Shown here: one piece after another, positions 6,559 to 35,850 of the stretch | Layout: the number at the start of each line of letters is the position of its first letter | Numbering within the stretch: the first letter of the stretch is position 1 | Assembly: GCF_042242105.1 (NCBI RefSeq) | Contig: NC_092019.1 | Span: 28,296,828 to 28,360,827 of the forward strand | Source of the DNA: Pempheris klunzingeri | Lineage: Eukaryota; Chordata; Actinopteri; Acropomatiformes; Pempheridae | DNA length: 64,000 bases | Reading direction: 5' to 3' | Position numbers and translations under genes: made by a program | The notes under the pieces: generated by a model | What the model was told of the DNA's origin: nothing | The model's input: only the letters and a program-made list of their open reading frames with translations | Databases searched by the model: none

Positions 6559-7928
6559 TGTGGCGAGCGGAGAGTCAGGAAAATAAATAAATAGTCGTTC
6601 TTACTCTACTTTTAACAAATCAAGTTGCCAGACAACGCCACTTTGGGATCTCAGCCCAAAGAACTGAATGACACACCTTTAAAGGCGCACAGGTCCGTTC
6701 ACTCAAGCGGCAAGAGACAGTGTTCCAATCTTCAAAATAAGTTTTATTGACCGAATTTGATTAAAATAATATAAAAACACACCATTCACACAGGGATTAA
6801 ACTAGGGGACTAAATTAAAGCTGAGGATACCAGTGCACGAGCTGATGGGGCGGTGAATCCCAACAAAAACAGCAAAAGAGAAGACACCCAGCCGTGACAG
6901 TCACACACACACACACACACACACGAAGGATACCCGAATCCCAGGGAGCACAGCACACAAAAGGGGATCCCACCACCAGACCACCGTACCTCAGCAACTA
7001 AAACAAAAGGAACACACACACATGTTAGTGGGGTTACAATAATCCAACAGAACAATATACAAAAACTTGTAAACAAATAAATGGCAGCAGAAATCAATTA
7101 AATTAAACTAAACTACCGGCTGCCAAATACAAATTACTCAAAATACAAAGCAAAATAAACAATGTAAGAAACAAGAAAAACCCTCTGCCCAAATGAAATA
7201 TCTAAACAAATAAATCTAAATACAAAAATAATCAATACAACAAATCAAGACAATGGGGCAGGGCAACTAAATGAAAACAAAAATGCAACCCACACCCCCA
7301 GCAAACAGACTTTAAAAGGGCTCCAATCAAGCCAGTCAATTAACTCCCGGACGTCGGCACTACAGAGTACCACGCAATACTTGTGAGTGATGTAAGCCAG
7401 GGAAAAGCAAATGTCCTAAGAAGGCAGGTCCACAGCTGGTGAAGTAGAGCCTCTCCACCAGACGGATGCTGGAAATCAGCGCGTTGTAGCAGACATGCCG
7501 AGGAAACTCACTGACGCCGATCTCCACAAAGCAGCAGCGATCCACACAAAGCTGCAGCGATCCACACAACGCAGCAGTGATCCAGACAAAGCAGGTCCCC
7601 ACAAAGCAGCAGCAGTCCCCAGCTACGAGCAGCGCCAACTGTGTGGTGAGTTGCCGATGCCACACACCTGACCGCAAAAATCACCGTGCCAACAGTGAGC
7701 AGGGTACACGATCAATAAAAACTCCGGGGCACTCGAACCAAGGGCCCTGCCCGATGCGAGCGTGGTTGAGCCGGCAATGACGCAACCAACCAGGAAGCAG
7801 AGAGGGAGAGCCAGCAGGAAGGAAATTCACCCCTGAAATAGCCATGGTGCCCTCAGTGGTTGGCTATGGTGCTGCCAATCGGCACCGTCAGAGCATAATA
7901 ATGGCAACACAATTTCTATGCTGCTACA
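6559..7928 (-). mobile_element. Solo LTR, family 1, copy 1 (1370 bp)
   Basis: Begins TGTGGCGAGC and ends TGCTACA, with a 4-bp target duplication GCTG (6555-6558 and 7929-7932). The unoccupied site is present at 59332-59335 in another R copy, where the flanks are continuous around a single GCTG. A second copy lies at 23455-24884. A minus-strand AATAAA (about 6745) suggests minus orientation. No primer site or pol sequence adjoins either end, so this is a solo LTR left by LTR-LTR recombination. Contains a short CA microsatellite near 6901-6924. Confidence 0.88.
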
Positions 7929-9003: not shown

Positions 9004-9313
9004 AGTTGTTCACTTGCTTCTGAGCGATCAGCCTCAACATCGTATGCTAATCAGTAAATAAGCAGTTTGATATTTCTGTAGCTGAGCGGCATGGAGAGGT
9101 CTTCACTGTTATGGATCATCTGTATAGATTAAACCTACTCAGTAGGTGTCTACATTGGCCTAATCTATGCTTGTTTTATTTCCATCTGGCATTCTGGCTA
9201 GCTAACGGTTTTCCTGCTTTTAATAGTCAGTCAAAATGCTGTTCCATTTTCAACCCTTCATGGATCTGATTTTTAACTTGTGTTACAGTTCATATTATCT
9301 AAAGCATGTTAAT

Positions 9314-11630
9314 CATAGTTAACCATAGACCTGATGTGTACTTGGACTGTTTTTCTCCAATTGATCTTGCTGAATTGACCTCAATAATCTCCTCATCTAG
9401 ATCGTCAACATGTCTCCTAGACCCCATTCCTACTGGACTACTTAAAGAGGTCCTGCCCCTAATTAACACGTCCTTACTGGATATGACAAATCAGTCTTTA
9501 CTAACAGGCTACGTACCACAGTCCTATAAAGTAGCAGTAATTAAACCTCTCCTGAAAAAGCCTACTCTTGATTCAGGTGTGTTAGCTAACTATAGACCTA
9601 TATCCAACCTTCCCTTTCTCTCCAAGATCCTGGAGAAAGTTGTACCTAATCAGCTGTGTAATTTTCTAAACTCTAATAGTCTATTTGAGGATTTTCAGTC
9701 AGGTTTTAGAGCGAACCACAGCACAGAGACAGCACTGGTGAAGGTTACAAACGACCTCCTTATGGCATCAGACAGAGGACTTCTCTCTGTCCTGGTCTTG
9801 TTAGACCTGAGTGCCGCTTTCGACACCATCGACCATCACATCCTGTTACAGAGACTGGAACAGTTCATTGGTATAAAAGGAACTGCATTAAGCTGGTTTA
9901 AGTCCTATTTATTAGATCGATTTCAGTTTGTACATATTAATAACGAATCCTCTGTCCACACTAAGGTTAGACATGGAGTTCCACAAGGCTCAGTGCTTGG
10001 ACCAATACTCTTTATCTTATATATGCTTCCTCTTGGTAATATTATCAGGAAGCACTCCATTCATTTCCACTGTTAGGTAGATGATACACAATTATATTTA
10101 TCAATAAAGCCAGATGAACACAATCAGTTGGTTAAACTTCAAATCTGCCTTAAGGACATAAAGTCCTGGATGAGCAGCAACTTTCTGCTGCTAAATTCAG
10201 ATAAAACTGAAGTTATTTTGCTCGGCCCCAGACACCTCAGAGACAGCTTTTCCACTACCTTAACTGCTCTGGAAGGCATTAATCTGGCCTCCAGCTCCAC
10301 TGTGAGGAATCTGGGAGTCTTATTTGATCAAGATTTGTCCTTTAACTCCCACATTAAACAGATTTCTAGAACTGCCTTTTTCCATCTACGTAATATTGCC
10401 AAAATCAGGCCCATCATATCCACTGATGATGCAGAAAAATTAGTCCATGCATTTGTCACTTCTAGGTTGGACTATTGTAACTCTTTATTATCAGGCTGCC
10501 CCAATAAGTCGTTAAAGACTCTCCAGTTGGTCCAGAACGCTGCTGCTCGTGTTCTGACGAGAACTAAAAGAAGAGACCACATTTCTCCTGTACTGGCTTC
10601 TCTTCATTGGCTTCCAGTAAAATCTAGAATAGAGTTTAAAATCCTTCTCCTCACCTACAAGGCTCTTAAGGGTCAGGCCCCATCATATCTTAAAGATCTT
10701 ATAGTACCGTACTACCCCACTAGAGCACTGCGCTCCCAGAATGCAGGTCTACTGGTGGTTCCTAAAGTCTCCAAAAGTAGTTCAGGAGGCAGAGCTTTCA
10801 GCTATCAGGCTCCTCTCCTGTGGAATCTCCTTCCAGTTTGGGTTCGGGGCACAGACACCCTCTCTACATTTAAGAGTAGACTAAAAACCTTCCTTTTTGA
10901 CAAAGCATATATTTAAGGGCTGGATCAGGCCTTAGACCAGCCCCTAGTTATGCTACTATAGGCTCAGACTGCCGGGGGACTCCTATGGTGCACTGAGCTC
11001 CTCTATTCTCTCTCCTCCTCTTCCTCTCCATCGTTATGTCTCATGTCAGTCAAATGTCTGCCTCTAACTTGCTACCTTCCCCGGAGCGTTTCTGTGCTTT
11101 CTCATCTCCCAGGTTCCTGTGGATCCTGTGGATCCTGGTCCTGGCCCTGCTGATGTGGTTCTCTGGTTCCTGTGGGTCCTGGTCCCGGTCCCGCTGATGT
11201 GGTTCTCTGGTTCCTGTGGATCCTGGTCCTGGTTCTGCTGATGTGGTTCCCTGGTTCCTATGGATCCTGGTCCTGGCCCCGCTGATGTGGTTCTCCACCA
11301 GCCAATGGATGTGCGTCTGTCCAAGGCTACAGCCTGTCCGTCCTTGGGAGCTGGATCTCTCCTTCACTGTGGTGCTCCCGGAGGTTTCTCTTTTCCCACT
11401 GGGTTTTTTGAGTTTTTCCTTCCCGAAGAAGGAGGGTCATAAAGGGCAGGTGATGCCTCGGACTGATCCATCGGACTGATCCATTGGCCTCATCGACTGC
11501 TGGACTCTTTATTAGATTGTTTGTTCGCTTACACTTGTTTATTTCAGTGAACTTTGTAAAGCACTATGAGACACTCTGTTGTGATATTGGGCTATACAAA
11601 TAAAATTGAATTGAATTGAATTGAATTGAA
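9314..11630 (+). mobile_element. L2-type LINE, 5'-truncated
   Basis: Inserted in hAT copy 1 with target duplication ttaat (9309-9313 and 11631-11635). The uninterrupted site is in the second hAT copy near 45805. The 3' end has a gctatacaaataaaa segment followed by a TTGAA-type tandem tail. Other copies are at 31156-32427, 44050-44908 (internal piece) and 60328-61733. Assignment to the L2/CR1 group rests on RT style and tail type. Confidence 0.88.
9330..10916 (+). pseudogene. LINE ORF2 reverse transcriptase remnant
   Basis: Encodes fingers/palm of a non-LTR reverse transcriptase: [38 protein letters not shown] and [11 protein letters not shown] in order, then thumb and C-terminal sequence to KTFLFDKAYI and TAA at 10914-10916. 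The catalytic YADD box is destroyed: a TAG at 10074-10076 takes the place of Y and the next codon is V, leaving VDD. No endonuclease domain remains, because of 5' truncation. The first ATG (9306) is in flanking hAT sequence and is not meaningful. Cannot be active. Confidence 0.9.
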
Positions 11631-18489: not shown

Positions 18490-18612
18490 TGATGATTTCT
18501 ATCCATCCTTCTGTTTGTCTTCCATCTGTTGGCAGCTTCCTCTTTCTGCCACGTCCAGGTAGTGTAGCCAGTGGTCCTTTAGCTTTGAGCTTGCAAACTA
18601 TGCTTCCAACAG
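18490..18612 (-). pseudogene. Tc1-like transposase fragment, C-terminal side of the break
   Basis: Minus-strand translation gives VGSIVCKLKAKG and LATLPGRGRKRKLP, the second half of the N-terminal helix-turn-helix of a Tc1-type transposase and the following GRPR-like hook. It is interrupted at 18612 by the CACTA element and continues at 28540. Only the DNA-binding region survives. Confidence 0.82.
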
Positions 18613-18624
18613 CACTGTAAAACC
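18613..18624 (+). repeat. CACTA element left terminal inverted repeat
   Basis: CACTGTAAAACC. Beyond 12 bp the ends diverge, but both subterminal regions carry ttaagt/acttaa hexamers. Confidence 0.85.
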
Positions 18625-18815
18625 GAACAGTATAAGTGCCTCAAAAATAGTGGGTTGTGTTAACTCAGAAATTCAAAAATGCTATTTGAACACTACTTTA
18701 TTTTAACTGATTTTGAATTTTAAGTACACTATACTTAATCCCTTTGACTGACATTTCTCTTTGTACTCAAAAAATCTGACAGGTATCTGTGTGACGTCAC
18801 GTACGCAGGTACATG

Positions 18816-19358
18816 TGTTGTGACTTCTCTGATGCCGATGATGTGCAGTTGATGAAAGGAGATGTCCGCTGACAACGACTTAGTGAATAAAAATAGGTTT
18901 ATTACAAAAAGGTCAGTTGTCTAACAGGCACCATGGAGCCTGGGAAGACGTTCAGCCAATTCTAGGAACAGACAGTGTAACCCCCAGCCGAATCTGCTGT
19001 CTCTGTCCTCGCCTTCCTCGAGCCACCTCTCTGGTCACTTCTTTATACCCCTTTGACCATCCATCCCAACATCTGGTTTTCATCCATATAACAGTTCTAT
19101 TCTTTGTTTTAGGGGTACAAGGATATATTAGAAAGACATCATCCCCCAGTATCTAGTAAGGGGGAGCAAAGGTCAGATCTCCACTGCCCAGGTCAAGCAG
19201 TTCCCAGTCTGTCTGTCTCCAGATAATCGATCACAGATCCGAAACAGAGAAACAATGACCACTACCACATCATATGCCCTAAAGGCACATACCAAACACT
19301 ACATACTTAGTTATACTCACTACAGACACATATCAGACACTGCATATCATACACCACA
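18816..19358. mobile_element. Solo LTR (543 bp) inside the CACTA 5' region
   Basis: Begins TGTTGTGACTTC, ends ATACACCACA, with target duplication CATG at 18812-18815 and 19359-19362. TGT...ACA ends and 4-bp duplication are as for retroviral LTRs. It separates the left terminus from the promoter/5' UTR region of the transposase gene. Confidence 0.82.
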
Positions 19359-19529
19359 CATGCTCCTCCCTCATCTGTTGAACAGTCCTCTTTCCGATGT
19401 TTCCCGCTATGAGAAAGTTTGTAGTGAGAGACCAGCTTGCATTTATGTGGATGTTGGTCGGATTTTGCCGGTAAAAAATACGATTTGCGGGTGCTAGTGA
19501 ACTTTTGAAGTGGAGCTCGCTGTAGCCTG

Positions 19530-19615
19530 CAGCACTTTTCTCTACCTGCTCATCTAGCTTCCGCTCCTGTGCTGACCGCCAGCACGTTGCTGCTTTCTCT
19601 CAGCGCGCTTATCTG
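19530..19615 (+). other. Probable 5' UTR exon 1 of the transposase gene
   Basis: A cytosine-rich, AT-poor block that ends at a strong splice donor (atctg|gtaagt, donor at 19616). It resembles a non-coding first exon. The transcription start is not defined by what I can see. Confidence 0.45.
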
Positions 19616-20250
19616 GTAAGTTAACGACTTTGTACCTCACTTTAATGTTGTTTTGCATTATTTTCTACACAAAATGCAAAATGATCCTGCAGTGGAAGCT
19701 TGTTCTGTAGTTCTCTAGTAGTTTACGGTGTGCTGTGGAGGCTGTGGACGTGTCTAATTAGAGGTAACGTCGATGATTTTCCACTCGTTTGCTGTAACAT
19801 AGTGAAGTTGTCTTTTTGTGAGTTCTTCTTTATTAGATAAATTAATTGTTAAAATCGGACTTGTTAGTTGTTAGGTTACAATCCAGACTGTTTTTTTTCT
19901 TCCAAACACCCTGAAACACTTCAAAAACCTTTAAGTTTAACATGCAAGGCCCTTTTCTGATGTTATCACTCTTTTACAGCTGAAAGTTTAGTAATATCTT
20001 TCTGTTGATCTTACTGTGATGATAAAACAGTTAATCATCAGCAAAACTTTCTTTCATTCAAGACATTACTTTAGACACATCTCTGTGTTATTTCAGGCAA
20101 AAAAAGCAGCATAAAACTAGTGGGAAAATATCTAGAAGATATGTAGGCTGTCCTATGTTTATATCATAAGGATTTTCCTGATATTTTATGGAATACTTTT
20201 GTGAAAATGTTGCAACTCCGTTAACTATTAATTTTTGTTTTTCTCTGCAG

Positions 20251-20294
20251 GCTGAAACTGAGACAACCAGCTGATAATCAGAGCTCTCATCCTG
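20251..20294 (+). other. Probable 5' UTR exon 2 of the transposase gene
   Basis: Preceded by a polypyrimidine tract and acceptor (tttttctctgcag ending 20250), followed by a donor (cctg|gtatgt). It has no ATG in useful frame, consistent with a leader exon ahead of the coding exon that starts at 20428. Confidence 0.5.
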
Positions 20295-20427
20295 GTATGT
20301 TGACACTGAACAGTTAGCCTAAATGGATATGTATTACACATAGTCACTTAATTCTGAATGAATATTTGGTGCACAGTACATAGGTTAATTTAAAAACCTG
20401 TCTCATTTGGGGGAGCATTATTATCTA

Positions 20428-23069
20428 ATGTCGTGGACATGTAAACTTTGTGCTGCTGTCTTTGATAAAAGGGGGCAGTTGCTTGAACACTATCGCTTGC
20501 GTCATAGCAATTTTTCTTCAATCTGTCCATTGCCTTGTCTCTGTGATGACTGTATATGCACATTTCAATCAGTAAATGCACTGAAAATTCACTTAACACA
20601 TTTGCATACAGTTGCAGCCGGTGGAAATCAAGTAGCATGTGTGTTATTCATCTGTCCTTTGTGTGGATTCAAGCAACCATTTAATGATAAAAGTCTCCTT
20701 AGCCATCTAAGGACACATTTAAAACAACATGAGATGGTGGATTGTCCATTCAAAAATTGTCATTACCGTACTAATGTGTATTCCTCCTTCAATGCACATA
20801 AAAGTAGGACTCACCCAGACTGTGATGTGTCAGATTTTAAGAATGGAATTGTCTTGACAGACATTGACAGCCAAACAATGCAGAGTCAAACTGATGAGAG
20901 TGGTCCTGAATGTAGTCCTTCTGTGTCAGAAGACACAGGTGAATTTCAAATTCAACTGAGAAACAATTTGGCCTCACTGTTCTTGAAAATGCACAGTGTT
21001 CTCCATGTATCAGAGATGGCTATACAGGACATAGTTGAAAACTTGTCACATATATTCTCATTGTCCCAGCCTCTTGTGAGAGACTCTGTCATTAGAGTTT
21101 TTCAAGAACACGATCAGTCTATCAGTGATGGCCTTCTTAATGAACTAGTGGAAGCCATCATGACAAGTAATGTTTTTGTTAGTGCTACTACAGAAGGTGC
21201 AGAGCTTTCCACCGCCAAGCAAAGGAAAACATTTGTCAGAAGTAACTACCCTCTGGTAATGCCAGTGCAGTATACTTTAGATTCTGGGGGACACACAGCA
21301 GTGTATGTTCCAATACTACAGATGCTTCAAACTATGTTTAAAAGTACTGATCTCCTTGTCAAGATTCAAGAGGCAAAAGCATCAACACCTGGAATGTACG
21401 TGTCTCATGAGGATGGAACATATTTCAAAGAAAATCAGTTACTGTCAGAAGCAGGAGAGCTAAAATTGTCACTGATTTTGTATGTGGATGACATTGAACT
21501 TGCTAATCCTTTGGGCACAGCTAGAAAGATCCACAAGCTTTGTGCAGTCTACTGGTTGCTTGCCAATGTACCCAGTCAGTACAGGTCCAGCCTGCATGTA
21601 ATACAGTTAGCTCTGCTATGTAAAGTACAAGGTCTGGAGAGGTGTGGTTATGAAAAGGTTCTTTCACCTTTGTTGAAAGATTTGCGCACTCTTGAACAGG
21701 ATGGCATTTTTATTGAAAGTGTTGGTCAGTGTATCAGGGGCACAGTGATGTATGTTGCAGCTGATAATCTGGCTGCACATGGCCTCGCAGGCTTTGTGCG
21801 GTGTTTCCGAGGACACTATGTGTGTAGATTCTGTTGCTGTACTACAGACCAGATACAGTCCAGTGAAGTTTCTGAAGGAGAGTTTAGCATGAGAATGAGA
21901 GCCTCACATGATCGTCTTGTGCAGGATGTTGTGCAAGGAGAAAAAGCATCTCACATTGGTGTTACTGGTGAGTGTGCTCTCGGCAAAGCACTGGAGCATT
22001 TTCATCCCATTACAGGTTTTCCACCTGATATCCTTCATGACCTGTTTGAGGGTATAGTTCCAGTTGAGCTGGCCTTGTGCATCCGTGAGATGATTCATCT
22101 TAAATATTTCACTCTTGAATATCTCAACACCAAAATTCACACATTTCCATATCAGCACTATGATAGGCTTGATAAACCACAACAAATCCCAAGGAATTTT
22201 GCAACCAAACTAAACATTGGTGGGAATGGACATGAAAATTCCACTTTATTGAGGTTATTACCATTTATGGTTGGAAGTAAAGTCCCCGAAGGAGATGAAG
22301 TATGGTCCATATTGATGGACCTTAGAGAAATTGTGCAGCTTGTGTTGTCTCCGTCTTTGACAGAGGAGTCTATCCTGTACATGCAGACTAAAATAAGCGA
22401 TCACAGGCAGGGGCTTCAAGCAGTGTTTCCAGACTTTAAACTGCGACCCAAGCATCATTATGTTGAGCACTACCCAGAACTCACAAAGCGTTTTGGGCCT
22501 CTTGTTCACCTATGGACCATGAGGTTCGAGGGAAAACATCGTTTTTTCAAAAGGGTGATCCATGACACAATTTCAAAAATGTCTTGAAAACTCTCGCTAC
22601 CAGGCATCAGCACATGATGGCTTATCATTTCAGTGCACCACTATTTTTCAAACCACACATACAAGCACCCAGTGTCATCTCTGTCCAAGTTGCCACATTG
22701 CCTCAAGTGGCAAAAGACTTCATAAAGACAAAGACGGAGAGCCAAAATGCATACAGTGCATCTAAGGTCTCCATAGAGGGCACAGAGTATACAAATGGAA
22801 TGTTTGTTTCTGCAGGCCAGAGGGGAGGACTTCCAAAATTTGGCAGGATTGAGCATATACTGCTTGTGAATAACGTAGTTTCCTTCCTTTGCAGGGACTA
22901 CGAGAGCTGGTACACTGAGCATTTAGGATCATTTGAGCTGACAAGTTCAGACAACTTCTGTGTGCATCAGCTGTCAGAGCTAAATGACACATTAAGTCTC
23001 ACAGCTTACAGTATTGATGGGCATTTAATGTTGACACAAAAAAGATTTATATTAATCACTGAAATGTAG
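20428..23069 (+). pseudogene. CACTA-type transposase with four C2H2 fingers (frameshifted)
   Basis: Long single-exon frame from ATG 20428 (MSWTCKLC); an upstream TTG is not a credible start. Four C2H2 fingers: C5/C8/H21/H26, C39/C42/H55/H60, C76/C79/H93/H97 and C106/C111/H124/H129. The transposase core follows: YVDDIELANPLG (from residue 352), ADNLAAHGLAGF (D446), a CRFCC cluster, PPDILHDLFEG (from 532), LLRLLPFMVG and WTMRFEGKHRFFK (E701). Order and spacing resemble Tnp2-type CACTA transposases; D354/355, D446 and E701 are candidate catalytic residues (inference). The frame ends at TGA 22585-22587, but homologous-looking sequence continues in another frame from NVLKTLATRHQH (about 22577) to TAG 23067-23069, so a small indel near 22565-22580 truncates the protein. 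Confidence 0.83.
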
Positions 23070-23358
23070 GCTTGAAAAGTTTTTAGAAGTATACTCATGG
23101 AGCAGTGTGGACATAATGAATACTGGTGTTATCTCACAAATAATATCCCATCAGTGACTCTGCCCCATGACAAACCTTAACAGACTTACTGGATCAACTG
23201 ATTTTCTTGCAAACAGCATGCATTTAAGGTTAATGATACATAGTTAAACCCAATGATGTTAATCACTTAAAGCTGTCTGAATTAGCTGTGATCAATTTCG
23301 TGTGTTGCAGAAAAGAAGGTTCTTCACTAATCCATTCTTTTCTGTTTTCTTTTTGTAG

Positions 23359-26300
23359 TTGTGGAAAATGGCAGCTCAGAACTTCATTCTTCGTGCCCAT
23401 ACCTCCACTGACATTGTGAGGAAGATGACTTTGTCCTCATGACCAGATTCTGTGTGTGGCGAGCGGAGGGTCAGGAAAATAAAAAGATAGTCGTTCTTAC
23501 TCTATTTAACAAATCAAGTTGCCAGACAACGCCACTTTGGGATCTCAGCCCAAAGAACTGAATGACGCACCTTTAAAGGCGCACAGGTCCGTTCACTCAA
23601 ATAGCAAGAGACAGTGTTCCAATCTCAAAAAAAATATAAGTTTTATTGACCGAATTTGATTAAAATGATATAAAAACACACCATTCACACGGGGATTAAA
23701 CTAGGGGACCAAATTAAAGCTGAGGATACCGGTGCACGAGTTGATGGAGCGGTGAATCCCAACAAAAACAAAAAAAAGAGAAGACACCCAGCTGTGACAG
23801 TCACACACACACACACACGTGAAGGATGCCCGAATCCCAAGGAGCACAGCACACAAAAGGGGATCCCACCACCAGACCACCGGACCTCAGCAACTAAAAC
23901 AAAAGGAACACACACACACGGGTTAGTGGGGTTACAGTAATCCAACAGAACAAACAATATACAAAAACTTGGAAACAAATAAATGGCAGCAGAAATCAAT
24001 TAAACTAAACTAAACTACCGGTTGCCAAATATAAGTTACTCAAAATACAAAGAGAAATAAGGTAAGAAACAAGAAAAACTCTGCCCAAATGAAATATCTA
24101 AACAAATAAATCTAAATACAAAAATAATCAATACAACAAATCAAGACAACTGAGCAGGGCAATGAAAACAAAAATGCAACCCACACCCCCAACAAACAGA
24201 CTTTAAAAAGGGCTCCAATCAAGCCAGTCAATGAATAACAGTCAGCACACCAGAGTACCACGCAATACTTGCGAGTGATGTAAGCCAGGGGAAAAGCAAT
24301 TGTCTTAAGAAGGCAGGTCCACAGCTGGTGAAGTAGAACCTCTCCACCAGACGGATGATGGAAATCGGCGCGTTATAGCGGACACGCCAAGGAAACGCCG
24401 ATCCACACAACGCAGCAGCGATCCACACAACGCAGGTCCCAACAAAGCAGGTCCCAACAAAGCAGTTCCCAACAAAGCAGGTCCCAACAAAGCAGCAGCG
24501 ATCCCCAGCTACGAGCAGCGCCAACTGTGTAGTCAGCTGCTGACGCCACACACCTGACCGCAAGAATCACCGTGCCGACAGTGAGCGGGGTACACGATCC
24601 ATTAAAAACTCCAGGGCACTCGAACCAAGGGCCCTGCAGTACAACACAGCAATTAATAATACCCACAGGCCTACACAGAAGGTGAGCAGACTAGCCGCCT
24701 TACCTGCCCGATGAGAGCGTGGTCGAGCCAGCAGTGACGCAACCAACCAGGAAGCAGAGAGGGAGAGCCAGCAGGGGGAAATCCACCCCTTAAATAGCCA
24801 TGGCGCCGTCAGTGGTTGGCTATGGTGCTGCCAATTGGCACCGTCAAAGTATAATAATGGCAACACAATTTCTATGTTGCTACATGTGGATGAGCTAAAA
24901 TCAATGATGAAAGAAAAGTTTCAGCTCGACTTTGACTTTAACTTATCCTATGAAGATCCAGACTTTGATGGGCAGCTATTTTCCCTTGTAGAAATTGAGG
25001 AACTTCCACAGAAGGCTGTACTCAAAGTTGTAAGGCCAGAGAGTGATGCCTGTTCTGTAGAGTCAGATGACACGCTAATATTGCCCCATGCCATGACTCC
25101 AAACAGGACCGAGAGATGGCCTGATGTTTTTCCATTGCCTACTTTTTCCCATGATGTAGAACTCATCCTCAGCGAGGGAAATCTTGCATATGAGAGGACA
25201 GGGAAAATTCTAAAGCTATCCAAGGGACAAAAGCATGACATCCTTGAGGCCCTGGCAGCCAAAATGCATAGCTTCAAAGCATACCCCAAAGATCAGGAAG
25301 TGTCAATGGTAGCAGAAGCCCTTGTCACCAGCCATCCTTGTCTTAAAGAGCCAGGTTCACAGACAGGATATTATGGCTGGAAAAATAGTCTAAAATTTAA
25401 AATGGGCAACTACCGCACCAAGTTGAATTGAGCAGGATTTCATGAGGCAGCAGTCAATTCTGGGAAGAGAAGTAAGAACAATCCAGACAAACAAGCTTCC
25501 CACACTGACATCAAAAGACCAAAGAGGGCAGAGGTGAACTTTCTTCCAAATTTCCCAAATGGTGAAAATGGTACAAGCCTTGAGCGACTGAGACTCCAGC
25601 TTGTTGATGAAGTTGAGATGAGTGAGAAAAATCTTCAACTGATTGCAAAGTTGATGCAGACCACCTTTGCCCTACGTCGCAGAGAGATTGTCAGTGAGGA
25701 CCGACCTGTTGGAGAGATCCTGGAACGCTGGCCTGCCCTTAAAATGCAGTCACAGGTGAAAGTACTGTCCTTTCTAGCCTTATTTGACCAGTTACATTTA
25801 CTTTCATATCTTTGCTGTGTCTTTAATACCTTGGACACAGATTTACAATAAACATGGCAAATGATATCGTAGTGTAAGGATCTTCTTTTTATGTATGTAT
25901 TTTCTCACATTTGACATGCAGTTGTTGCTTTATGTTTGCTTATAATTTTTTACAAATACTTTTTACTCTGTTTTAAAAGTGATCTTATATTTGTCCAGAT
26001 CTGCGCCAAGTTCCACAGAATTACAAACATTAGCCTGAAGAACCACTTCTATGGCGAGCTGGATCAGCATGTACCACATCTTCAAAATCTGTTCAGAAAG
26101 AAAGCTGCACGCACCGGGAAAATAGCTGAATCTCTGGACCAACTCTTCAGGACTTACGATCTCCAGGTAAATTGGTTAATCTTTTTGGTACTTGAGAATG
26201 ATATCTGTCTTTGTTACAGAACTTAGATCTCTTAACCATGGAAGGGCTCTATTATATAGTACTCTGTAGGTTTTTTGTTTGGCATTTGTAGTAAAGCATG

Positions 26301-27193
26301 ACTATTCTTCCACACTGAAGGAGCAAGTTGATGTCCATGTCAGACGTGCTGCTGTCCTTCGTGCTCTCCCTGCATATCTGCATGAGGATGACTCCGGATT
26401 TTTGAAGACATGGGATGTAAGTCAGCATGTTCATTTTTACTAACTGGTGTGTAATTTTGTAACTCCTCTACTCTTTAGGTGTTATTTCGGTTCTAGTTGC
26501 AGGTTTTGAATACTAACATAACTGAAAACCAAAGTGAGAATGCAAACACATTCATCAAGGGCTGAATTTCACGTATATTAATCTGAAACAACTGTCATTG
26601 CAAAGTAAAAAATAGGCTTCCCTGACATTATGGCATGACGCTTTAAAATGGATAGCTGTCATTGTCAAGCACACTATCACTCCTAAGTAGAGTCTTTTTC
26701 TGATATACATTAAATTACCAGTTTATTGGATTCATTTAGCTAAGATCTAGTCCTGCAGTGAGGGATGAAATATAATTTATTATGTATTTAGCTGTTTTAA
26801 ATGTATGTATTTTTTTTTTTGACAAACTGGATTTTGGCAATTCTGGGATAATGGATAATAATTTTCTGATGTTTTCAGGTGGCACAGACTGATGAACCAG
26901 ACATCGACAACACAGTGGTTGGGCTGCTCTTGATCTGCACCGGGTCAACACATGCCACATTCTTCTGCCCAGAGAGGGTTGCAGTTGTGCTTGAGGGTAA
27001 CATTGTAATCCATCTCCCCACACTGGCTGATGCTTTTATCATGCTTTTTGCACTGATGTATGTCCTGCATCTAAGCTATCCAAAAGAGATGGTCAATACG
27101 TTTGACTTCACTCAGAAGGTCTTGATGGGTTTAGAGGATGGGACATTGAGGCCCAGGGTGTTGAGTCTAAAAGATTACATTTTGTCAATGTAG
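23359..27193 (+). pseudogene. Second CACTA-borne gene: PB1-like, SAMD3-like family (broken)
   Basis: Five coding blocks with GT-AG borders: 23359-23454 joined to 24889-25755 (one exon split by an LTR), 25999-26166, 26297-26416 and 26879-27193, about 518 codons from ATG 23368. Exons 3 and 4 are exact codon multiples. The N-terminus (VDELKSMMKEKF, YEDPDFDGQLFSL, LPQKAVLKVV) looks like a PB1 fold. Then come WPDVFPLPTFSHDVEL, KLSKGQKHDILEA, PCLKEPGSQTGYYGWK and a conserved C-terminus. This matches my memory of fish proteins labelled SAMD3-like; I see no SAM domain here. Inactivating changes: TGA at 23440-23442, TGA at 25429-25431 (both explained by CGA to TGA decay), and a solo LTR at 23455-24884. 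It lies 0.3 kb after the transposase gene on the same strand. Confidence 0.78.
23455..24884 (-). mobile_element. Solo LTR, family 1, copy 2 (1430 bp), inside an exon
   Basis: Same family as 6559-7928 (TGTGGCGAGC to TTGCTACA) with target duplication TGTG (23451-23454 and 24885-24888). It lies inside a coding exon: flanking codons join in frame (D-S-V-D-E-L) when the LTR and one TGTG are removed. Relative to copy 1 it has extra sequence near 24430-24500 (tandem gtcccaacaaagca) and 24640-24710. Confidence 0.92.
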
Positions 27194-27273
27194 TAATCTC
27201 AAACAATACAAAACTTCTTGACTGATAGGTCTTCTCATTTGCACGTGCACTGCTGCCATTTGGGCACACAAGA

Positions 27274-27560
27274 GAGCATTAACAAATTCTGAATAGTTTA
27301 TAAATTACTTTAATATTTAAAGTTGGACAAATTGGTTTGAACTGTGAATGTCCACCATTTTTACTGCAGAGCATTAACAAATTCTTTATTATTTACTTTA
27401 GTGCTTAAAAAGCACAAGTTGGACAAATTTGTTTGAACTGTGAATGTCCACCATTTTTACTGCAGAGCATTAACAAATTCTTTATTATTTACTTTAGTGC
27501 TTAAAAAGCACAAGTTGGACAAATTGGTTTGAACTGAATGAATGTCCATTGTTTCTACTG
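27274..27560. repeat. Three tandem copies of a 95-bp unit
   Basis: The start gagcattaacaaattc recurs at 27274, 27369 and 27465. Units two and three are nearly identical and contain gtgcttaaaaagcac, an inverted repeat; unit one is more diverged. The array lies after the stop of the accessory gene, within the element's 3' non-coding region. Confidence 0.9.
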
Positions 27561-28189
27561 CAGTACACAGTTTCCATTTCTTTTAATAGTTAAAGTTAAG
27601 TTATTGGGTCTTTATTGCTCATGTGGTAAATCTACAGGCACAAATGTTTTAATGTAATGTGTTAAAGTAGCTCTGTTAATTAAATAGTTTTTACATCTGG
27701 TTATTTCATGTTTAAACAGTTTTTTAACTGAATTTTGTCTCAGGTCACTTTGGGCCCCTGTTGTATTTTTGAAAAACTGTTAAATAGTATGTATCATGTC
27801 ACTGTTCGACACATTTGACACTGTGATCATAATAATTGTGTCTACTGAGTAGAAGAGAAACTGTGAGAAAGCACTTGCACTTTTTATATTACTTATGCAT
27901 TGTTGCAATAGTTTTATAAAAGTTAAATGGTTATTGCCAGAAAGACATTTTTCAGCACTGTCCACTGATAAAAATGTCATCAGGCCATTTCCCAGGGCCC
28001 TTGCACTCTTTTGAATGTTTTTCTTTTTTAAAAGCATCTGAATATTGATGTTTAGCCAGTGTTTATGGCTGCCAACAGTTAATAAAAGAGTTATATGGAT
28101 GTAAATAATCTGTGTTATCTTTTAATGTTTATGTGAAATGTATGCATTGCAATACAATGCAAAAAGGAATAGCAATTAAGTAAGACAAA

Positions 28190-28527
28190 AAAAACAACTT
28201 TAGCTTTGTTTAACTCAGTAAAGTTAAGTACACATAAAGTTAACAATTCTGTGCAGAGTACATAAATATTTTAAGTTAACTGATACAAATTTTCAAGTTA
28301 GCTCTAATTTATGTTTATTTGTACAGTGTAAATAAAACAATTGAGTTACTTTAGCTCAATTCTGCATGTTATTAAACTTAAAAATAAAAGTAAGTATCAC
28401 TTAAAATTGCCAAGTCAAATCTACTTAAACCAGATTGCTGCTGTTAATTAAAAATTTTGAGTTGATGTACTTAAAATTTTTGATGTAATCGGTTTCAAAA
28501 AATGTTTTGAGTTCAATTAACTTATCA
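28190..28527. repeat. Subterminal repeat cluster of the CACTA element
   Basis: Six copies of ttaagt/acttaa and four of aagttaa/ttaactt, in both orientations, within about 340 bp inside the right end; two more ttaagt/acttaa copies lie at 18720-18740 by the left end. In known CACTA elements such subterminal motifs are protein-binding sites; that role here is inference. Confidence 0.55.
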
Positions 28528-28539
28528 GGTTTTACAGTG
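28528..28539 (-). repeat. CACTA element right terminal inverted repeat
   Basis: ggttttacagtg, the reverse complement of the left end for 12 bp. Followed by AG of the target duplication. Confidence 0.85.
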
Positions 28540-28640
28540 AGTATCTCCAAGGACATTCAGTGCCTTTTCTATCTTTTTGTATGCTTTTCCTTTTTTGTGT
28601 AAGGCACAATATTTCAAGAGTGACAATGACGATAGTCATG
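28540..28640 (-). pseudogene. Tc1-like transposase fragment, N-terminal side of the break
   Basis: Minus-strand reading gives LKYCALHKKGKAYKKIEKAL then NVLGDT, the first helices of a Tc1-type helix-turn-helix. It continues in frame into VGSIVCK at 18612 across the CACTA insertion. No start codon or terminal repeat of the Tc1 element found. Confidence 0.8.
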
Positions 28641-31155: not shown

Positions 31156-32427
31156 TTCAATTCAATTCAATTTTATTTGTATAGCCCAATATCACAACAG
31201 AGTGTCTCATAGTGCTTTACAAAGTTCACTGAAATAAACAAGTGTAAGCGAACAAACAATCTAATAAAGAGTCCAGCAGTCGATGAGGCCAGTGGATCAG
31301 TCCGATGGATCAGTCCGAGGCATCACCTGCCCTTTATGACCCTCCTTCTTCGGGAAGGAAAAACTCAAAAAACCCAGTGGGAAAAGAGAAACCTCCGGGA
31401 GCACCACAGTGAAGGAGAGATCCAGCTCCCAAGGACGGACAGGCTGTAGCCTTGGACAGACGCACATCCATTGGCTGGTGGAGAACCACATCAGCGGGGC
31501 CAGGACCAGGATCCATAGGAACCAAGGAACCACATCAGCAGAACCAGGACCAGGATCCACAGGAACCAGAGAACCACATCAGCGGGACCGGGACCAGGAC
31601 CCACAGGAACCAGAGAACCACATCAGCAGGGCCAGGGCCAGGACCAGGATCCACAGGATCCACAGGAACCTGAGAGATGAGAAAGCACAGAAACGCTCCG
31701 GGGAAGATAGCAAGTTAGAGGCAGACATTTGACTGACATGAGACATAACGATGGAGAGGAAGAGGAGGAGAGAGAATAGAGGAGCTCAGTGCACCATAGG
31801 AGTCCCCCGGCAGTCTGAGCCTATAGCAGCATAACTAGGGGCTGGTCTAAGGCCTGATCCAGCCCTTAAATATATGCTTTGTCAAAAAGGAAGGTTTTTA
31901 GTCTACTCTTAAATGTAGAGAGGGTGTCTGCCCCCCGAACCCAAACTGGAAGGAGATTCCACAGGAGAGGAGCCTGATAGCTGAAAGCTCTGCCTCCTGA
32001 ACTACTTTTGGAGACTTTAGGAACCACCAGTAGACCTGCATTCTGGGAGCGCAGTGCTCTAGTGGGGTAGTACGGTACTATAAGATCTTTAAGATATGAT
32101 GGGGCCTGACCCTTAAGAGCCTTGTAGGTGAGGAGAAGGATTTTAAACTCTATTCTAGATTTTACTGGAAGCCAATGAAGAGAAGCCAGTACAGGAGAAA
32201 TGTGGTCTCTTCTTTTAGTTCTCGTCAGAACACGAGCAGCAGCGTTCTGGACCAACTGGAGAGTCTTTAACGACTTATTGGGGCAGCCTGATAATAAAGA
32301 GTTACAATAGTCCAACCTAGAAGTGACAAATGCATGGACTAATTTTTCTGCATCATCAGTGGATATGATGGGCCTGATTTTGGCAATATTACGTAGATGG
32401 AAAAAGGCAGTTCTAGAAATCTGTTTA
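31156..32427 (-). mobile_element. L2-type LINE inserted in provirus pol
   Basis: 5'-truncated copy on the minus strand with a TTGAA-type tail at 31156-31180. Target duplication gagaa at 31151-31155 and 32428-32432. The ORF2 C-terminus is readable at 31866-32440, ending KTFLFDKAYI. Removing it reconnects RNase H and integrase coding sequence in one frame. It must be younger than the provirus. Confidence 0.9.
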
Positions 32428-32432
32428 GAGAA

Positions 32433-33640
32433 GTGGATCATCAGTGTCAAGAGGGAGAGAAACAAAAATGTCAGAAGGTGAGATGGAGGGGAAACTTCCA
32501 CTGTTCTTTGCAGCAACCTTAGCAGCTGCATCTGCATCTGCACGAGCGTTGCCTGTGGAAATAGGGTTAGAGTTGCTGGTGTGAGCAGCACACTTGCAGA
32601 CAGCAATAGAGGAAGGCAAAAGAATAGCTTTGAGAAGGTCAGACACTTGTTGAGCATTGGAAATAGATGTGCCTGAGGAGGTAATGAAGTCCCTTTGTTT
32701 CCAGAGGGCACCAAAATCATGAACAACTCCAAAGACATACCTGGAATCTGTATGTATAGTAACAGATTTCCCTTTTGCAATTTTACAGGCTTCGGTGAGC
32801 GCTACAAGTTCATTTTGTTTTGTTTTTTTGAGCAGAGAAATGAGAGGGGAAAGAAACTGAAGCAAGAATTTCAGTTTGAGAGCACACAGCAAAACCCACA
32901 CAGTCTTGTCCTGTAGTGGGGTCCCGGGAATCTATACGAGGGGTACAGAGTTGGGCTGCAGCCACGCAGTCATGTGGCTCGCCATCATCTGGAAGAGGGA
33001 GGAGAGTAGCTGGGATGTTTTCTGTACAGGAGTTTACATACAGAGTGAGGAACAGACAGGGTGAGAGGAGCATACAACACAATATCCTGTGATGCCAGCA
33101 CAGCCTTCTCAGCTGCTGCAACAGCACGAAGACAATGAGGGAGTGCTGCAGCCACAGGGTCAAGTTTTGCAGAGAAAATACGCCACAGGGCGCAGTTTTC
33201 CCTCCATGGTCCTGCAAAAGCACAGAAGTTATGCAACCTCGTCGTTGGTCTACAGTCTGTATGAAGGGTCGAATCGAGTCAGGTAAGCCTAGTCAGCTGT
33301 TGGCTTCGTCAGTCCAGGTCAGGGGCGCATGCGCATGGGGAAGGCCTATCGTGAGCTCACGGAGTGGTTTGTCTATAATGGCAAAGTTTTGAATGAATGT
33401 GCGACAGTAAGAACACATTCCCAGTAAGGACATCGTTTGATTTTTAGTCTGTGGTTTGGGAAGCCTGTGAATGGCTTCAGTTCTTTTTTGAGAGAGAGAG
33501 ATTTTGTCCTGTGGAAGAGATAACATGTCCTAGAAATGTTACTTCTTGTTTCAGAAATTGAAGTTTTGATTGCCAGCTTCGTGGTCTCTTTCAGCTAGGA
33601 GTTTCAACAGTGTAACAGTGCCACATTCACATTGTTTAGC
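32433..33640 (-). pseudogene. Retroviral pol remnant: RT connection and RNase H
   Basis: Minus strand from 33640: AKQCECGTVTLLKLLAE (just after where the palm would be), then LPKPQTKNQTMSLLGMCSYC in the frame 33526-33293, further pol in shifted frames (LPDDGEPHDCVAA near 33000), and an RNase H with QNELVALTEACKIAKGK, TIHTDSRYVFGVVHDF and RADADAAAKVAAK (32901-32433). Several stops and shifts break it. The palm with its YXDD box is not present. Confidence 0.85.
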
Positions 33641-34022
33641 AGACAGCAGTGTGTTGTGTGTGTCCTGTGTGTGTGTATGTGACATGTGTGTGTGTGTCGT
33701 GTGTGTGTGTGACCTGTGTGTATGTGACATGTGTCCTATGTGTGTGTATGTGACATGTGTCCTATGTGTGTGTATGTGACATGTGTGTGTGTGTGTTTGT
33801 GTGTACTGTATGTGTGTTGTGACCTGTGTGTGTACTGTGTGTGTCCTGTGTGTGTATGACGTGTGTGTGTCCTGTGTGTCGTGTGCGTCCTATGTGTGTG
33901 TATGTGACGTGTGTGTGTGTCGTGTGTGTGTGTGTGTGTGACCTGTGTGTGTATGTGACATGTGTGTGTGTCGTGTGTGTGTGACCTGTGTGTGTACTGT
34001 GTGTGTGTGTGTGTGTGTGTAC

Positions 34023-34063
<41 letters not shown>

Positions 34064-34177
34064 CTGTGTGTACTGTGTGTGTGTGTGTGTGTGTACTGTA
34101 TGTGTGTGTGTGTACTGTGTGTGTACCTGTGTGTACTGTATGTGTGTGTGTGTGTACTGTGTGTGTACCTGTGTGTG

Positions 34178-34218
<41 letters not shown>

Positions 34219-34420
34219 GTATATGTGTGTGTGTGTACTGTGTGTGTACCTGTGTGTGTACTGTGTATGTGTGTTGTGACCTGTGTGTGTACCTGTGTGT
34301 GTATGTGACGTGTGTGTGTGTCGTGTGTGTGACCTGTGTGTGTCCTGTGTGTGTATGTGACGTGTGTGTGTGTCGTGTGTGTGACCTGTGTGTGTCCTGT
34401 GTGTTGTGTGCGTGACCTGT
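33640..34420. repeat. Large GT/AC-rich array
   Basis: About 780 bp of tgtg blocks punctuated by tgtact, tgtacctg, tgacctg, tatgtgacatg and tcgtgtg variants, showing nested higher-order repeats and not a pure dinucleotide run. It sits between gag nucleocapsid and RT connection sequence. Long frames through it (THTHTG or CVCV repeats on the two strands) are low-complexity and not credible genes. Confidence 0.95.
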
Positions 34421-34429
34421 CTCTGTGGC

Positions 34430-35850
34430 TCGCACTCCCCGGTCTGATTCTGGAAGTCCTCCCTCTCCACTGGCGCCCGTATGTCAATCCGATGTGTGAG
34501 GTGCCTGCCGCTGCTGGTGGTGCAGGCATCATGAGCAATGTTGGGTGGGGGCCCAGCTGGGTTGGACCTTCGGTCTCGTAGGTCTCCAGTGTTGTCCTTG
34601 GCCTTCTGCAGCTTGTGCTGTAGCTTGACGTTTGTGTTCCTGCATTTGTTTCTTCTCCATCAGCTGTCGTTCGGCGTAAATGGCATGTCGGTGGATTTCA
34701 TTTAATCTTGCTTCAGTGTAGCATACACAGGAGGCCTTCACAGTTGTGGATGTCAGGGCGGAGTCCATTTAGAAAACAATTGGTTAGGTGTGTTTCCCAC
34801 ACCCCCAGTGTGTGTCCCCTGTTTTCAGGTTGCGCAATGCCGTGCTTGTTTGTATGCAGCGTTATCCTGATGGTCCCAGTCAGGGTGTGTGATGCGTTCA
34901 TGGCCGTTGCTTTTGTCAGCAACCTTGGAAAAGTCTGTAGCAGAAACTTTCTTACCCAGAAGGTGTTTTATTTCAGGCATTGTGGGCTGGAATTGATGGC
35001 AAAAGTCATTAAACTGAACTACAAAAACTGTTCCATTGATGTTCATGGGAGGGAGGTGTTCAGAGGCTTCTATGATGTTCTTGTCTGTCCATGGTTTGTA
35101 AACCACAATAGGACCCTCTGGTTGGAAGACAGCATCATCAGAGTTTTGTTCACGGTGTTTCATTCTCTGTCGGGTGGACATGTAGTGGCCTGAAGCTCCC
35201 TCACTTCCCTCAAAAATGACGAGTCTGGCTTTCCTTGTTGGATGCCGTCACGTCTGTTCTGTGGCGGTACAGCTGGCTGGGCAGGCGGAGGAGGCGGCTT
35301 GTTGTTGATGACGGGGCGGCGCAGTGTTGAGGTCGGGGTCCAGCTTCAGAGCGGTGAGCTGCGGATAAAAAAAAAATAGAAACAGGCTGCGAGTATGGGG
35401 GAGGACAATTTAAGTGCGTGCGAAGTTTGTATTACTTCAGGTTTATCGTCAGGCTTCACATCATTCATACGATCACTTTAACAACTTGTACGCTTTCTGT
35501 CCCTACTTTCCGCTTCCTTCTCCCACACTGTGAGACACTTCATGTGCTTCTCCATATCTTCTAACTCCCTTATAGAAACTTTCCTTTTCCTTCTCCTATC
35601 CTTTGCCTCGCTTCTCCAATCTTTCCTACAGTTTCTTCAGTTCATTCATACTAAGAGCCATACTCTGGGAACCCATATTTCGAACTCCATACAGACAAAC
35701 ATGTGAAACCTTTTCTCTCTCCCCCCCCTTTTTTTTTTTTTTCTTTCTTTCTTCTCCCATGACATCCACCATCGGCCCCTCCGGAGGTCCCAGCCTCGAC
35801 GGTATACTCCCCATTCCAAATGTGAAGGTTGTGCACAACTATTACAATAC
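34430..35850 (-). pseudogene. Retroviral gag remnant
   Basis: Minus strand. From about 35838: MALSMNELKKL then a basic stretch (matrix-like). A capsid part follows at 35181-34825 (PEGPIVVYKPWT, HLPPMNINGTVFVVQFNDFC, GKKVSATDFSKVADK), with continuing sequence at 34768-34529 (EIHRHAIYAERQL, KRQATAQAAEGQGQ). The nucleocapsid region near 34540-34430 has no clear intact zinc knuckle. Multiple stops and frame changes; not translatable as one protein. Confidence 0.75.

What the first reader, a model, noticed from the sequence alone, without database searches (positions are those of the whole stretch)
18613..28539. A CACTA-type transposon carrying a transposase and a second, multi-exon PB1-like gene
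Seen: matching CACTGTAAAACC termini, an AG target duplication, and two same-strand genes between them. The second gene has five coding blocks with clean GT-AG borders and about 518 codons. Known: plant En/Spm makes two proteins (TNPA, TNPD), and fish genomes hold many genes labelled SAMD3-like. Inference: part of that fish family may be transposon-borne accessory protein, not host gene, expanded by transposition.
Basis: partly seen in the sequence, partly recalled or inferred. Interest (0 to 1): 0.85.

Follow-up and report, generated by a model that had tools for sequence, protein, structure and literature searches.

The report
Jumping gene carrying SAMD3-like partner gene
A fish DNA transposon of the CACTA type carries, next to its transposase, a second gene that databases list as the host gene 'SAMD3-like'; relatives of this gene travel inside transposons in many fishes, and the pike and salmon lineage appears to have turned a copy into a gene of its own.

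Summary
The element is real. Window 18613-28539 has exact CACTGTAAAACC ends, a 2-bp target duplication, a zinc-finger/DDE transposase and a downstream same-strand PB1-like gene (gene 2). This copy is dead: the transposase frame breaks, and gene 2 has two stops and a 1,430-bp solo LTR in its first coding exon (510 codons in four exons, not 518). In the same genome 30 of 68 gene-2 loci lie within 10 kb of a transposase match (0.12 expected), all same strand, 29 with gene 2 downstream. Six complete elements of three families (transposase down to 33% identity) carry both genes between CACTG ends with 2-bp duplications; two are 99.8% identical at different sites. Gene-2 and transposase divergence correlate (r=0.92). 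Of 183 gene-2 proteins retrieved, 20 are fused to transposase, in each of the three deepest clades of my tree. None of 57 scanned has a SAM_1/SAM_2 domain. So much of the fish SAMD3-like family is CACTA accessory gene. A conserved pike/salmon gene nested among them looks domesticated. Human SAMD3 may be an older case, but that rests on a recalled sequence. Gene 2's function (TnpA-like) is inferred, not shown.

The parts
18613..18624 (+). left terminal inverted repeat CACTGTAAAACC
   Evidence: exact; same end in the C4 and C23 copies
28528..28539 (-). right terminal inverted repeat CACTGTAAAACC
   Evidence: exact; same end in the C4 and C23 copies
18611..18612 (.). left copy of the AG target-site duplication
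28540..28541 (.). right copy of the AG target-site duplication
18816..19358 (.). inserted TG..CA sequence of about 543 bp (probable solo LTR), 4-bp CATG duplication, absent from C4 and C23 copies
   Evidence: edges set by reading the sequence
20428..22584 (+). gene 1, transposase, first frame (719 aa): four C2H2 fingers (residues 5, 37, 76, 106) and DDE core with D354/D355, D446, C466-x2-C469, H677-x3-H681, E701
   Evidence: relatives
22566..23069 (+). gene 1, C-terminal part in another frame after a frameshift
   Evidence: the C4 copy changes frame at the same residue
23368..23454 (+). gene 2, start of coding exon 1 (PB1-like N-terminus); TGA stop at 23440-23442
23455..24884 (.). solo LTR (1,430 bp, TG..CA) in gene 2 exon 1; TGTG duplication 23451-23454 and 24885-24888
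   Evidence: a second copy of this LTR at 6559-7928, about 89% identical over its longer piece
24889..25755 (+). gene 2, rest of coding exon 1; TGA stop at 25429-25431; donor GT follows
25999..26166 (+). gene 2, coding exon 2
   Evidence: conserved in C4 and C23 copies
26321..26416 (+). gene 2, coding exon 3
26879..27193 (+). gene 2, coding exon 4 with stop
28240..28519 (.). right subterminal region with ACTTAAAAT/ATTTTAAGT repeats (tested together with 18633-18812)
   Evidence: 4 of 200 dinucleotide shuffles reach the observed count

Best explanation
This is a dead copy of an animal CACTA (EnSpm, CMC-group) cut-and-paste transposon with two genes: a C2H2 zinc-finger DDE transposase and, downstream on the same strand, an accessory protein (gene 2: PB1-like domain plus a body for which relatives are named SAMD3-like). 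Shown: the two genes sit together between CACTG ends with 2-bp duplications in three diverged families, have been copied to new sites together, and have diverged in step in this genome; relatives in other fishes are repeatedly found fused to the same transposase. Inferred: gene 2 is the working counterpart of plant TnpA. The PB1 end would make it self-assemble or pair, and the body would bind the subterminal repeats or the transposase, helping bring the two ends together or controlling the element's promoter. Also inferred: both proteins come from one transcript by splicing. Confidence: transposon-borne accessory gene about 0.93; TnpA-like synapsis or regulatory role about 0.45.
For: Linkage 30 of 68 loci, 0.12 expected, 30/30 same strand, 29/30 downstream; 26 of 27 top loci have transposase within 1.5 kb, the 27th being the window. 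Two-bp duplications in 6 of 6 complete elements: window AG, C4 CA, C23 CA, C16 TG, C10 TA, C7 CA. C10 and C7 copies 99.8% identical over 8,793 bp at different sites, transposase ORF 885 codons open in both, main gene-2 ORF identical in 368 of 368 residues. Transposase and gene-2 pairwise identities across 13 dereplicated loci r=0.92, Spearman 0.77, Mantel 0 of 5000. Deep dN/dS about 0.4 for both genes. 20 of 183 gene-2 proteins fused to transposase, present in each of the three deepest clades of the tree. CMC signature D-D-C(2)C-H(3)H-E (motif from passages of PMC12730594). Zinc-finger-plus-gene-2 models in Thunnus and Hoplias, resembling the spliced products of Spm and SmTRC1 (passages of PMC1636069).
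Against: 38 of 68 gene-2 loci show no transposase within 10 kb by coordinates; 11 of these were read and 8 proved to hold transposase remnants, 3 did not, 27 were not read. Several loci are subtelomeric duplicates of each other, so the count is not 30 independent events. 23 of 54 transposase loci have no gene-2 match; 20 of those were not read, and one that was (C7:164597) is a truncated copy without gene 2. dN/dS among young copies is near neutral (0.32 to 2.2 where defined), so constraint on gene 2 is seen only in comparison with a decayed copy. Subterminal repeats exceed chance in two of three families (window 4/200, C10 0/200, C16 30/200). In the tree one nine-row subclade (Polypterus, Carassius and others) has no fusion among my rows. 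Four near-identical loci keep gene 2 with only a transposase remnant nearby. No structure could be predicted. Splice isoforms are gene models, not RNA I examined.
Confidence: 0.9

Rival explanations
1. Gene 2 is a host gene (SAMD3-like) recently captured by this one transposon as a passenger.
For: Gene 2 has introns and a host-like PB1 domain; the name SAMD3 comes from a host gene.
Against: Gene 2 is present in three families, two of them with transposases only 33% and 45% identical to the window's, in step with the transposase, and fused to transposase in models from many fishes.
Confidence: 0.04
2. The transposon lineage captured a host SAMD3-type gene long ago, and all transposon copies descend from that capture (host first, transposon second).
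For: A SAM-plus-body host gene exists in tetrapods (sequence recalled); direction is not fixed by an unrooted comparison.
Against: The recalled SAMD3 body scores higher against the PB1-type gene-2 profile (71 bits) than the transposon-borne C10-type gene 2 does (45.7 bits), which hints that the transposon gene is older than the split. Long branches and the unverified sequence make this weak.
Confidence: 0.3
3. Gene 2 is a selfish passenger or regulator (for example countering host silencing) rather than part of the transposition machinery.
For: Other DNA transposons carry such genes, e.g. TET/JBP dioxygenases in fungi (passages of PMC12730594). Near-identical copies at four sites keep gene 2 with only a 41-residue transposase remnant within 1.5 kb (L035-L038).
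Against: Frequent pairing with the transposase and matched divergence suggest a core role, but do not exclude this.
Confidence: 0.3
4. The co-occurrence is produced by segmental duplication rather than transposition.
For: Loci near the ends of C11, C18, C22, C23 and C24 are near-identical around gene 2 (pairs among four of them 99.5-99.9%), and C21 shows the same cluster by coordinates.
Against: Elsewhere, copies end exactly at CACTG with different flanks and 2-bp duplications.
Confidence: 0.03

Closest known systems
Maize En/Spm (CACTA) with TnpA and TnpD
   Same: CACT-type ends and a second protein on the same strand; [quoted passage not shown]
   Different: 2-bp, not 3-bp, duplication (3 bp recalled); gene 2 has a PB1-like domain and SAMD3-type body; similarity to TnpA itself was not tested
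SmTRC1 and animal TRC CACTA elements
   Same: animal CACTA, 2-bp duplications in 7 of 14 copies, extra proteins without the transposase domain made by splicing (passages of PMC1636069)
   Different: SmTRC1's extra proteins had no detectable relatives there; gene 2 here is recognisable across teleosts and annotated as a host gene
Fish EnSpm families of Repbase
   Same: probably the same superfamily in fish (recalled)
   Different: Repbase is not held here, so whether a consensus with this second protein is already listed could not be checked
Kolobok KolX protein and its domesticated forms P2X7 and Nanor
   Same: a transposon's second protein that was fused into, or became, vertebrate genes (passages of PMC9587614)
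   Different: another transposon superfamily; relation of the two proteins was not tested
SAMD3 (host gene of tetrapods)
   Same: body of the recalled human protein matches the gene-2 profile, residues 137-505 to profile 101-501, 71 bits, 0 of 100 shuffles reach E 0.001
   Different: SAM domain in place of PB1; single-copy host gene (recalled)

Membership tests
CACTA/EnSpm (CMC group) | termini beginning CACTR | tested here: met
   CACTG in all three families read:
CACTA/EnSpm (CMC group) | short target-site duplication (2 bp reported for animal elements) | tested here: met
   6 of 6 complete elements, 2 bp each; animal value from passages of PMC1636069
CACTA/EnSpm (CMC group) | DDE transposase with C(2)C and H(3-4)H between second D and E | tested here: met
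   D354/355, D446, C466-x2-C469, H677-x3-H681, E701; the matching columns are invariant or nearly so in 42 relatives. The catalytic roles are read from the motif, not tested
CACTA/EnSpm (CMC group) | Transposase_21 (tnp2) family match | tested here: inconclusive
   window protein: not among its matches at E<=10; 14 of 42 relatives match at E<=1, best 0.001; Plavaka in 6 of 42, best 4.4e-05
CACTA/EnSpm (CMC group) | subterminal repeats | tested here: inconclusive
   enriched in window (4/200 shuffles) and C10 (0/200), not in C16 (30/200)
En/Spm two-protein system | second protein encoded within the element on the same strand | tested here: met
En/Spm two-protein system | both proteins from one alternatively spliced transcript | not tested
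   only gene models joining zinc fingers to gene 2 in Thunnus and Hoplias; no RNA examined
En/Spm two-protein system | second protein binds subterminal repeats and is needed for transposition | not testable with these tools
   needs experiment
SAMD3 (SAM-domain protein) | SAM domain | tested here: not met
   no SAM_1/SAM_2 in 41 (E<=1), 6 (E<=1) and 10 (E<=0.1) gene-2 proteins; 0 of 68 gene-2 loci within 100 kb of any of 88 SAM_1 matches. The first exon of the C10-type gene 2 has a weak SAM_TNK match, E 0.054, under the cut-off
SAMD3 (SAM-domain protein) | SAMD3 body | tested here: inconclusive
PB1-domain protein | PB1 fold | tested here: inconclusive
   E 0.0006, below Pfam's cut-off, window protein; 21 of 41 relatives at E<=1; no fold could be predicted

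The most novel reading that the evidence does not exclude
Vertebrate SAMD3 itself is a domesticated CACTA accessory gene in which the PB1 end was replaced by a SAM domain, and the pike/salmon gene is a second, independent domestication in which the PB1-type gene was joined to a zinc-finger-protein type N-terminus. The SAMD3-like family would then be a repeated source of host genes, as KolX was for P2X7 and Nanor.
Probability: 0.5. Interest if true: 0.85.

Novelty: new variant of a known kind. Interest (0 to 1): 0.72.

Why it matters
Many fish gene-catalogue entries called SAMD3-like or PB1-domain protein (one search found 427 clusters related to gene 2, of which 120 were listed) would be transposon accessory genes, which affects gene-family counts, orthology and expression lists (one zebrafish study lists samd3-like among regulated genes, passage of PMC7037442). 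It supplies a conserved, traceable second protein for an animal CACTA lineage, where SmTRC1's had no recognisable relatives (passages of PMC1636069). It makes the origin of SAMD3, and of a conserved pike/salmon gene, directly testable.

Tried and rejected
Forkhead-like DNA-binding domain in gene 2: weak PDB matches to FOXO chains (E 0.24-0.7). Profile comparison with typed forkhead domains scored above all 60 column shuffles, but aligned only 9 columns at 3.9% probability; not adopted. The 12-bp terminus as a genome-wide marker: no better than control. Selection on gene 2 from young copies: uninformative. Relatives in viral contigs (transposase profile) and in prokaryote genome contigs (gene-2 profile): none confirmed by tblastn, from 72 and 139 pattern stretches. 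Host SAMD3 in the window's genome: not found; 0 of 68 gene-2 loci near SAM_1, and the pike protein gave no match to its first 146 residues. SAMD3 tree placement with the recalled sequence: grouped inside PB1-type rows but on a branch of 5.3; not usable. Literature, eight searches: SAMD3+CACTA 2, EnSpm+zebrafish+accessory protein+transposase 1, on Kolobok, EnSpm+PB1 domain+transposon 0, SAMD3-like 1, SAMD3+transposon 6; by title and abstract start none concerns this link. Three broader searches listed 20, 9 and 9 papers. Of all these I opened passages of five (PMC1636069, PMC7037442, PMC12062965, PMC12730594, PMC9587614) and none states the link in those passages. The library is open-access only and holds no Repbase Reports as far as these searches show.
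Full report
WHAT IS THERE. The window lies in a 646-Mb genome held as G000, unnamed; that it is a fish is inferred from its relatives. The reported termini are exact and the only two in the window, with AG on both sides. Gene 1 runs 20428-22584 and continues in another frame to 23069: four C2H2 fingers, then D354/D355, D446, C466-x2-C469, H677-x3-H681 and E701. That order, with C(2)C and H(3-4)H between the second D and E, is the signature given for EnSpm, Mirage, Chapaev, Transib and Plavaka transposases in passages of PMC12730594. Pfam's Transposase_21 is not among the window protein's matches but matches 14 of 42 relatives weakly (best E 0.001) and Plavaka 6 of 42 (best 4.4e-05).

Gene 2 has coding exons 23368-25755 (less an insert), 25999-26166, 26321-26416 and 26879-27193, giving 510 codons and a stop. 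It begins with a PB1-like domain (Pfam E 0.0006, under the cut-off). This copy is broken: TGA at 23440-23442 and 25429-25431, and a TG..CA insert of 1,430 bp (23455-24884) flanked by TGTG, a solo LTR by its look, inside the PB1-coding exon. The C4 and C23 copies run straight through that site. A second such insert (about 18816-19358, CATG) lies near the left end. The transposase frame break recurs at the same residue in the C4 copy, so it may have been copied in trans.

OTHER COPIES IN THE SAME GENOME. A protein search with gene 2 gave 98 matches, which group into 68 loci; the transposase gave 69 matches, 54 loci. By coordinates, 30 of 68 gene-2 loci have a transposase match within 10 kb, all 30 on the same strand and 29 with gene 2 downstream; 0.12 were expected. 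31 of 54 transposase loci have gene 2 within 10 kb. The searches score only the best candidates, so these are lower bounds. Of the 30 top gene-2 matches returned as DNA, three are second pieces of a locus already there (L014, L016, L017); of the 27 distinct loci, 26 hold transposase sequence within 1.5 kb and the other is the window, where the LTR has pushed it to 2.3 kb. Of the 38 loci unlinked by coordinates, 11 were read: seven among those 27 (L012, L013, L033, L035-L038; the last four by a 41-residue remnant) and C3:30001713 (L042) hold transposase remnants; three (L043-L045, fetched because a 12-mer end lay near) do not, though each joins a CACTGTAAAACC end to element-like DNA. The other 27 were not read. 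A caution: loci near the ends of C11, C18, C22, C23 and C24 are near-identical blocks (pairs listed at 99.5-99.9%), with a like cluster on C21, and are not independent.

Of the 23 transposase loci without a gene-2 match, three were read. Two belong to the C10 family below and do have gene 2. The third, C7:164597, is a copy of the window's family (94% over 1,573 bp) that stops inside the transposase and has neither gene 2 nor a right end in the following 5.3 kb: a truncated copy, not a complete element without gene 2. Twenty were not read.

COMPLETE ELEMENTS. Six elements were delimited. Window: AG/AG. C4:23527604-23534862, 7,259 bp, CA/CA. C23:17821562-17828928, 7,367 bp, CA/CA. C16:19394169-19401471, 7,303 bp, transposase 45% identical to the window's and with two stops, ends CACTGAAAAAACAAACTT, TG/TG; a copy at C1 with an open transposase has the same left end at another site, its right side being Ns. 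C10:9863409-9872432 and C7:23036895-23045912, about 9.0 kb, transposase 33% identical, ends CACTGTAAAAT, TA/TA and CA/CA, 99.8% identical over 8,793 bp. Were bases equally frequent, 2-bp duplications in the five elements other than the window would have a chance of about one in a million. In C10 and C7 the transposase frame is open for 885 codons and the main gene-2 ORF is identical in 368 of 368 residues. This family had first been scored as lacking gene 2; more distant queries found it downstream (22-39% identity). Its first coding exon encodes, in place of PB1, a short domain with a weak SAM-like match (SAM_TNK, E 0.054, under the cut-off).

CO-INHERITANCE. Over 13 dereplicated loci (78 pairs) pairwise identities of transposase and gene 2 correlate at r=0.92 (Spearman 0.77; Mantel 0 of 5000); a few close pairs strengthen r. 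Comparison of the window with the decayed C5 copy gives dN/dS 0.41 and 0.40 for the two genes; young copies range from 0.32 to 2.2 where defined, near neutral, as expected of copies after insertion.

OTHER FISHES. Three searches gave 300 proteins in all (only the best 120 of 427, 397 and 299 hits are listed, with overlap). 183 of the 300 carry gene 2, and 20 of these are fused to transposase pieces (14 of the first 240). Three of the 20 came from the transposase search, which favours fusions; without them it is 17 of 180. Some fusions rest on short transposase pieces (28 residues at least). Names in the listings place fusions in Astyanax, Thunnus, Labeo, Leuciscus, Scophthalmus, Collichthys, Coilia, Menidia, Oryzias, Hoplias, Metynnis and Serrasalmus. 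In a 56-row tree (midpoint root, rows chosen by me) the 11 fused rows fall in each of the three deepest clades (11, 9 and 36 rows), though a nine-row subclade with Polypterus and Carassius has none. Species are scattered: Paramormyrops, an osteoglossomorph, appears in five separate places, and one of its proteins is 93% identical over 473 residues to one of Leuciscus, as expected of mobile or horizontally moved genes; no dS could be computed and contamination is not excluded. Models in Thunnus maccoyii (three rows) and Hoplias join the zinc-finger end of the transposase to gene 2, skipping much of the catalytic part. I treat this as a lead for alternative splicing, as in Spm and SmTRC1 (passages of PMC1636069), not as RNA evidence.

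A HOST GENE FROM IT. Esox (a protacanthopterygian), Umbra and Salvelinus share a 625-660 aa protein (Umbra 85% and Salvelinus 78% identical to Esox over its whole length), and Oncorhynchus a 468-aa protein that matches 67% of it, joining gene 2 to an N-terminus that I recall as typical of fish zinc-finger proteins (the Oncorhynchus model begins differently). The four form one clade, 100/100, inside the tree, sister (100/98) to a clade containing a fusion. Conserved, one cluster listed per species and without transposase in the models, it is best read as a domesticated copy; synteny and expression were not tested. The window's genome gave no match to its N-terminus.

SAMD3. None of 57 gene-2 proteins scanned has a SAM_1 or SAM_2 domain (41, 6, 10), and none of 68 loci lies within 100 kb of the 88 SAM_1 matches, so the name must come from the body (inference). 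This is unverified. It scores higher than the transposon-borne C10-type gene 2 does (45.7 bits), which hints that SAMD3 split off within the transposon lineage, but the tree placement has a branch of 5.3 and cannot be used.

MECHANISM. Shown: gene 2 travels inside the element and has diverged in step with the transposase. Inferred: the transposase cuts at CACTG ends and inserts with a 2-bp stagger; gene 2 assembles through PB1 and acts on subterminal repeats or on the transposase, as TnpA does. Subterminal repeats exceed chance in window (4/200) and C10 (0/200) but not in C16 (30/200). A role in countering silencing is an open rival.

NOVELTY. Eight literature searches and passages of five papers gave no statement of the link. 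Repbase itself is not held, so a database entry for the second protein may exist. I rate it a new variant of a known kind.

Noticed in passing
window 6559-7928: A second copy of the LTR that interrupts gene 2, about 89% identical over its longer piece.
   Followed up: no
window 9303-10916, 31866-32801, 44202-44933, 60235-61056: Repeated reverse-transcriptase-like ORFs that look like one LINE family; the window is rich in transposons. Judged by eye, not searched.
   Followed up: no
window 33736-34659: Long CACA-type simple repeat giving spurious ORFs on both strands.
   Followed up: no
G000 ends of C11, C18, C21, C22, C23, C24: The same cluster of several two-gene loci near chromosome ends; pairs listed (C18, C22, C23, C24) are 99.5-99.9% identical: subtelomeric duplication of transposon clusters.
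   Followed up: partly
L035-L038 (C22:3.83M, C11:20.81M, C10:25.54M, C11:23.45M): Near-identical copies that keep gene 2 but show only a 41-residue transposase remnant within 1.5 kb; L035, L036 and L038 are close in DNA to L018, L037 to L019: probably non-autonomous derivatives that retain the accessory gene.
   Followed up: partly
L056 (G000:C7:161500-171400): Truncated copy of the window's family with a long array of about 50-bp repeats grown from its left part.
   Followed up: partly
P0300 (Triplophysa dalaica): Gene 2 joined to a different N-terminus, perhaps another domestication or a model artefact.
   Followed up: no
P0029 (Paramormyrops) and P0046 (Leuciscus): 93% identical gene-2 proteins in very distant fishes; possible horizontal transfer.
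   Followed up: partly
L052:5234-5435: First exon of the C10-type gene 2 encodes a SAM-like domain (sub-threshold) where other families have PB1.
   Followed up: partly
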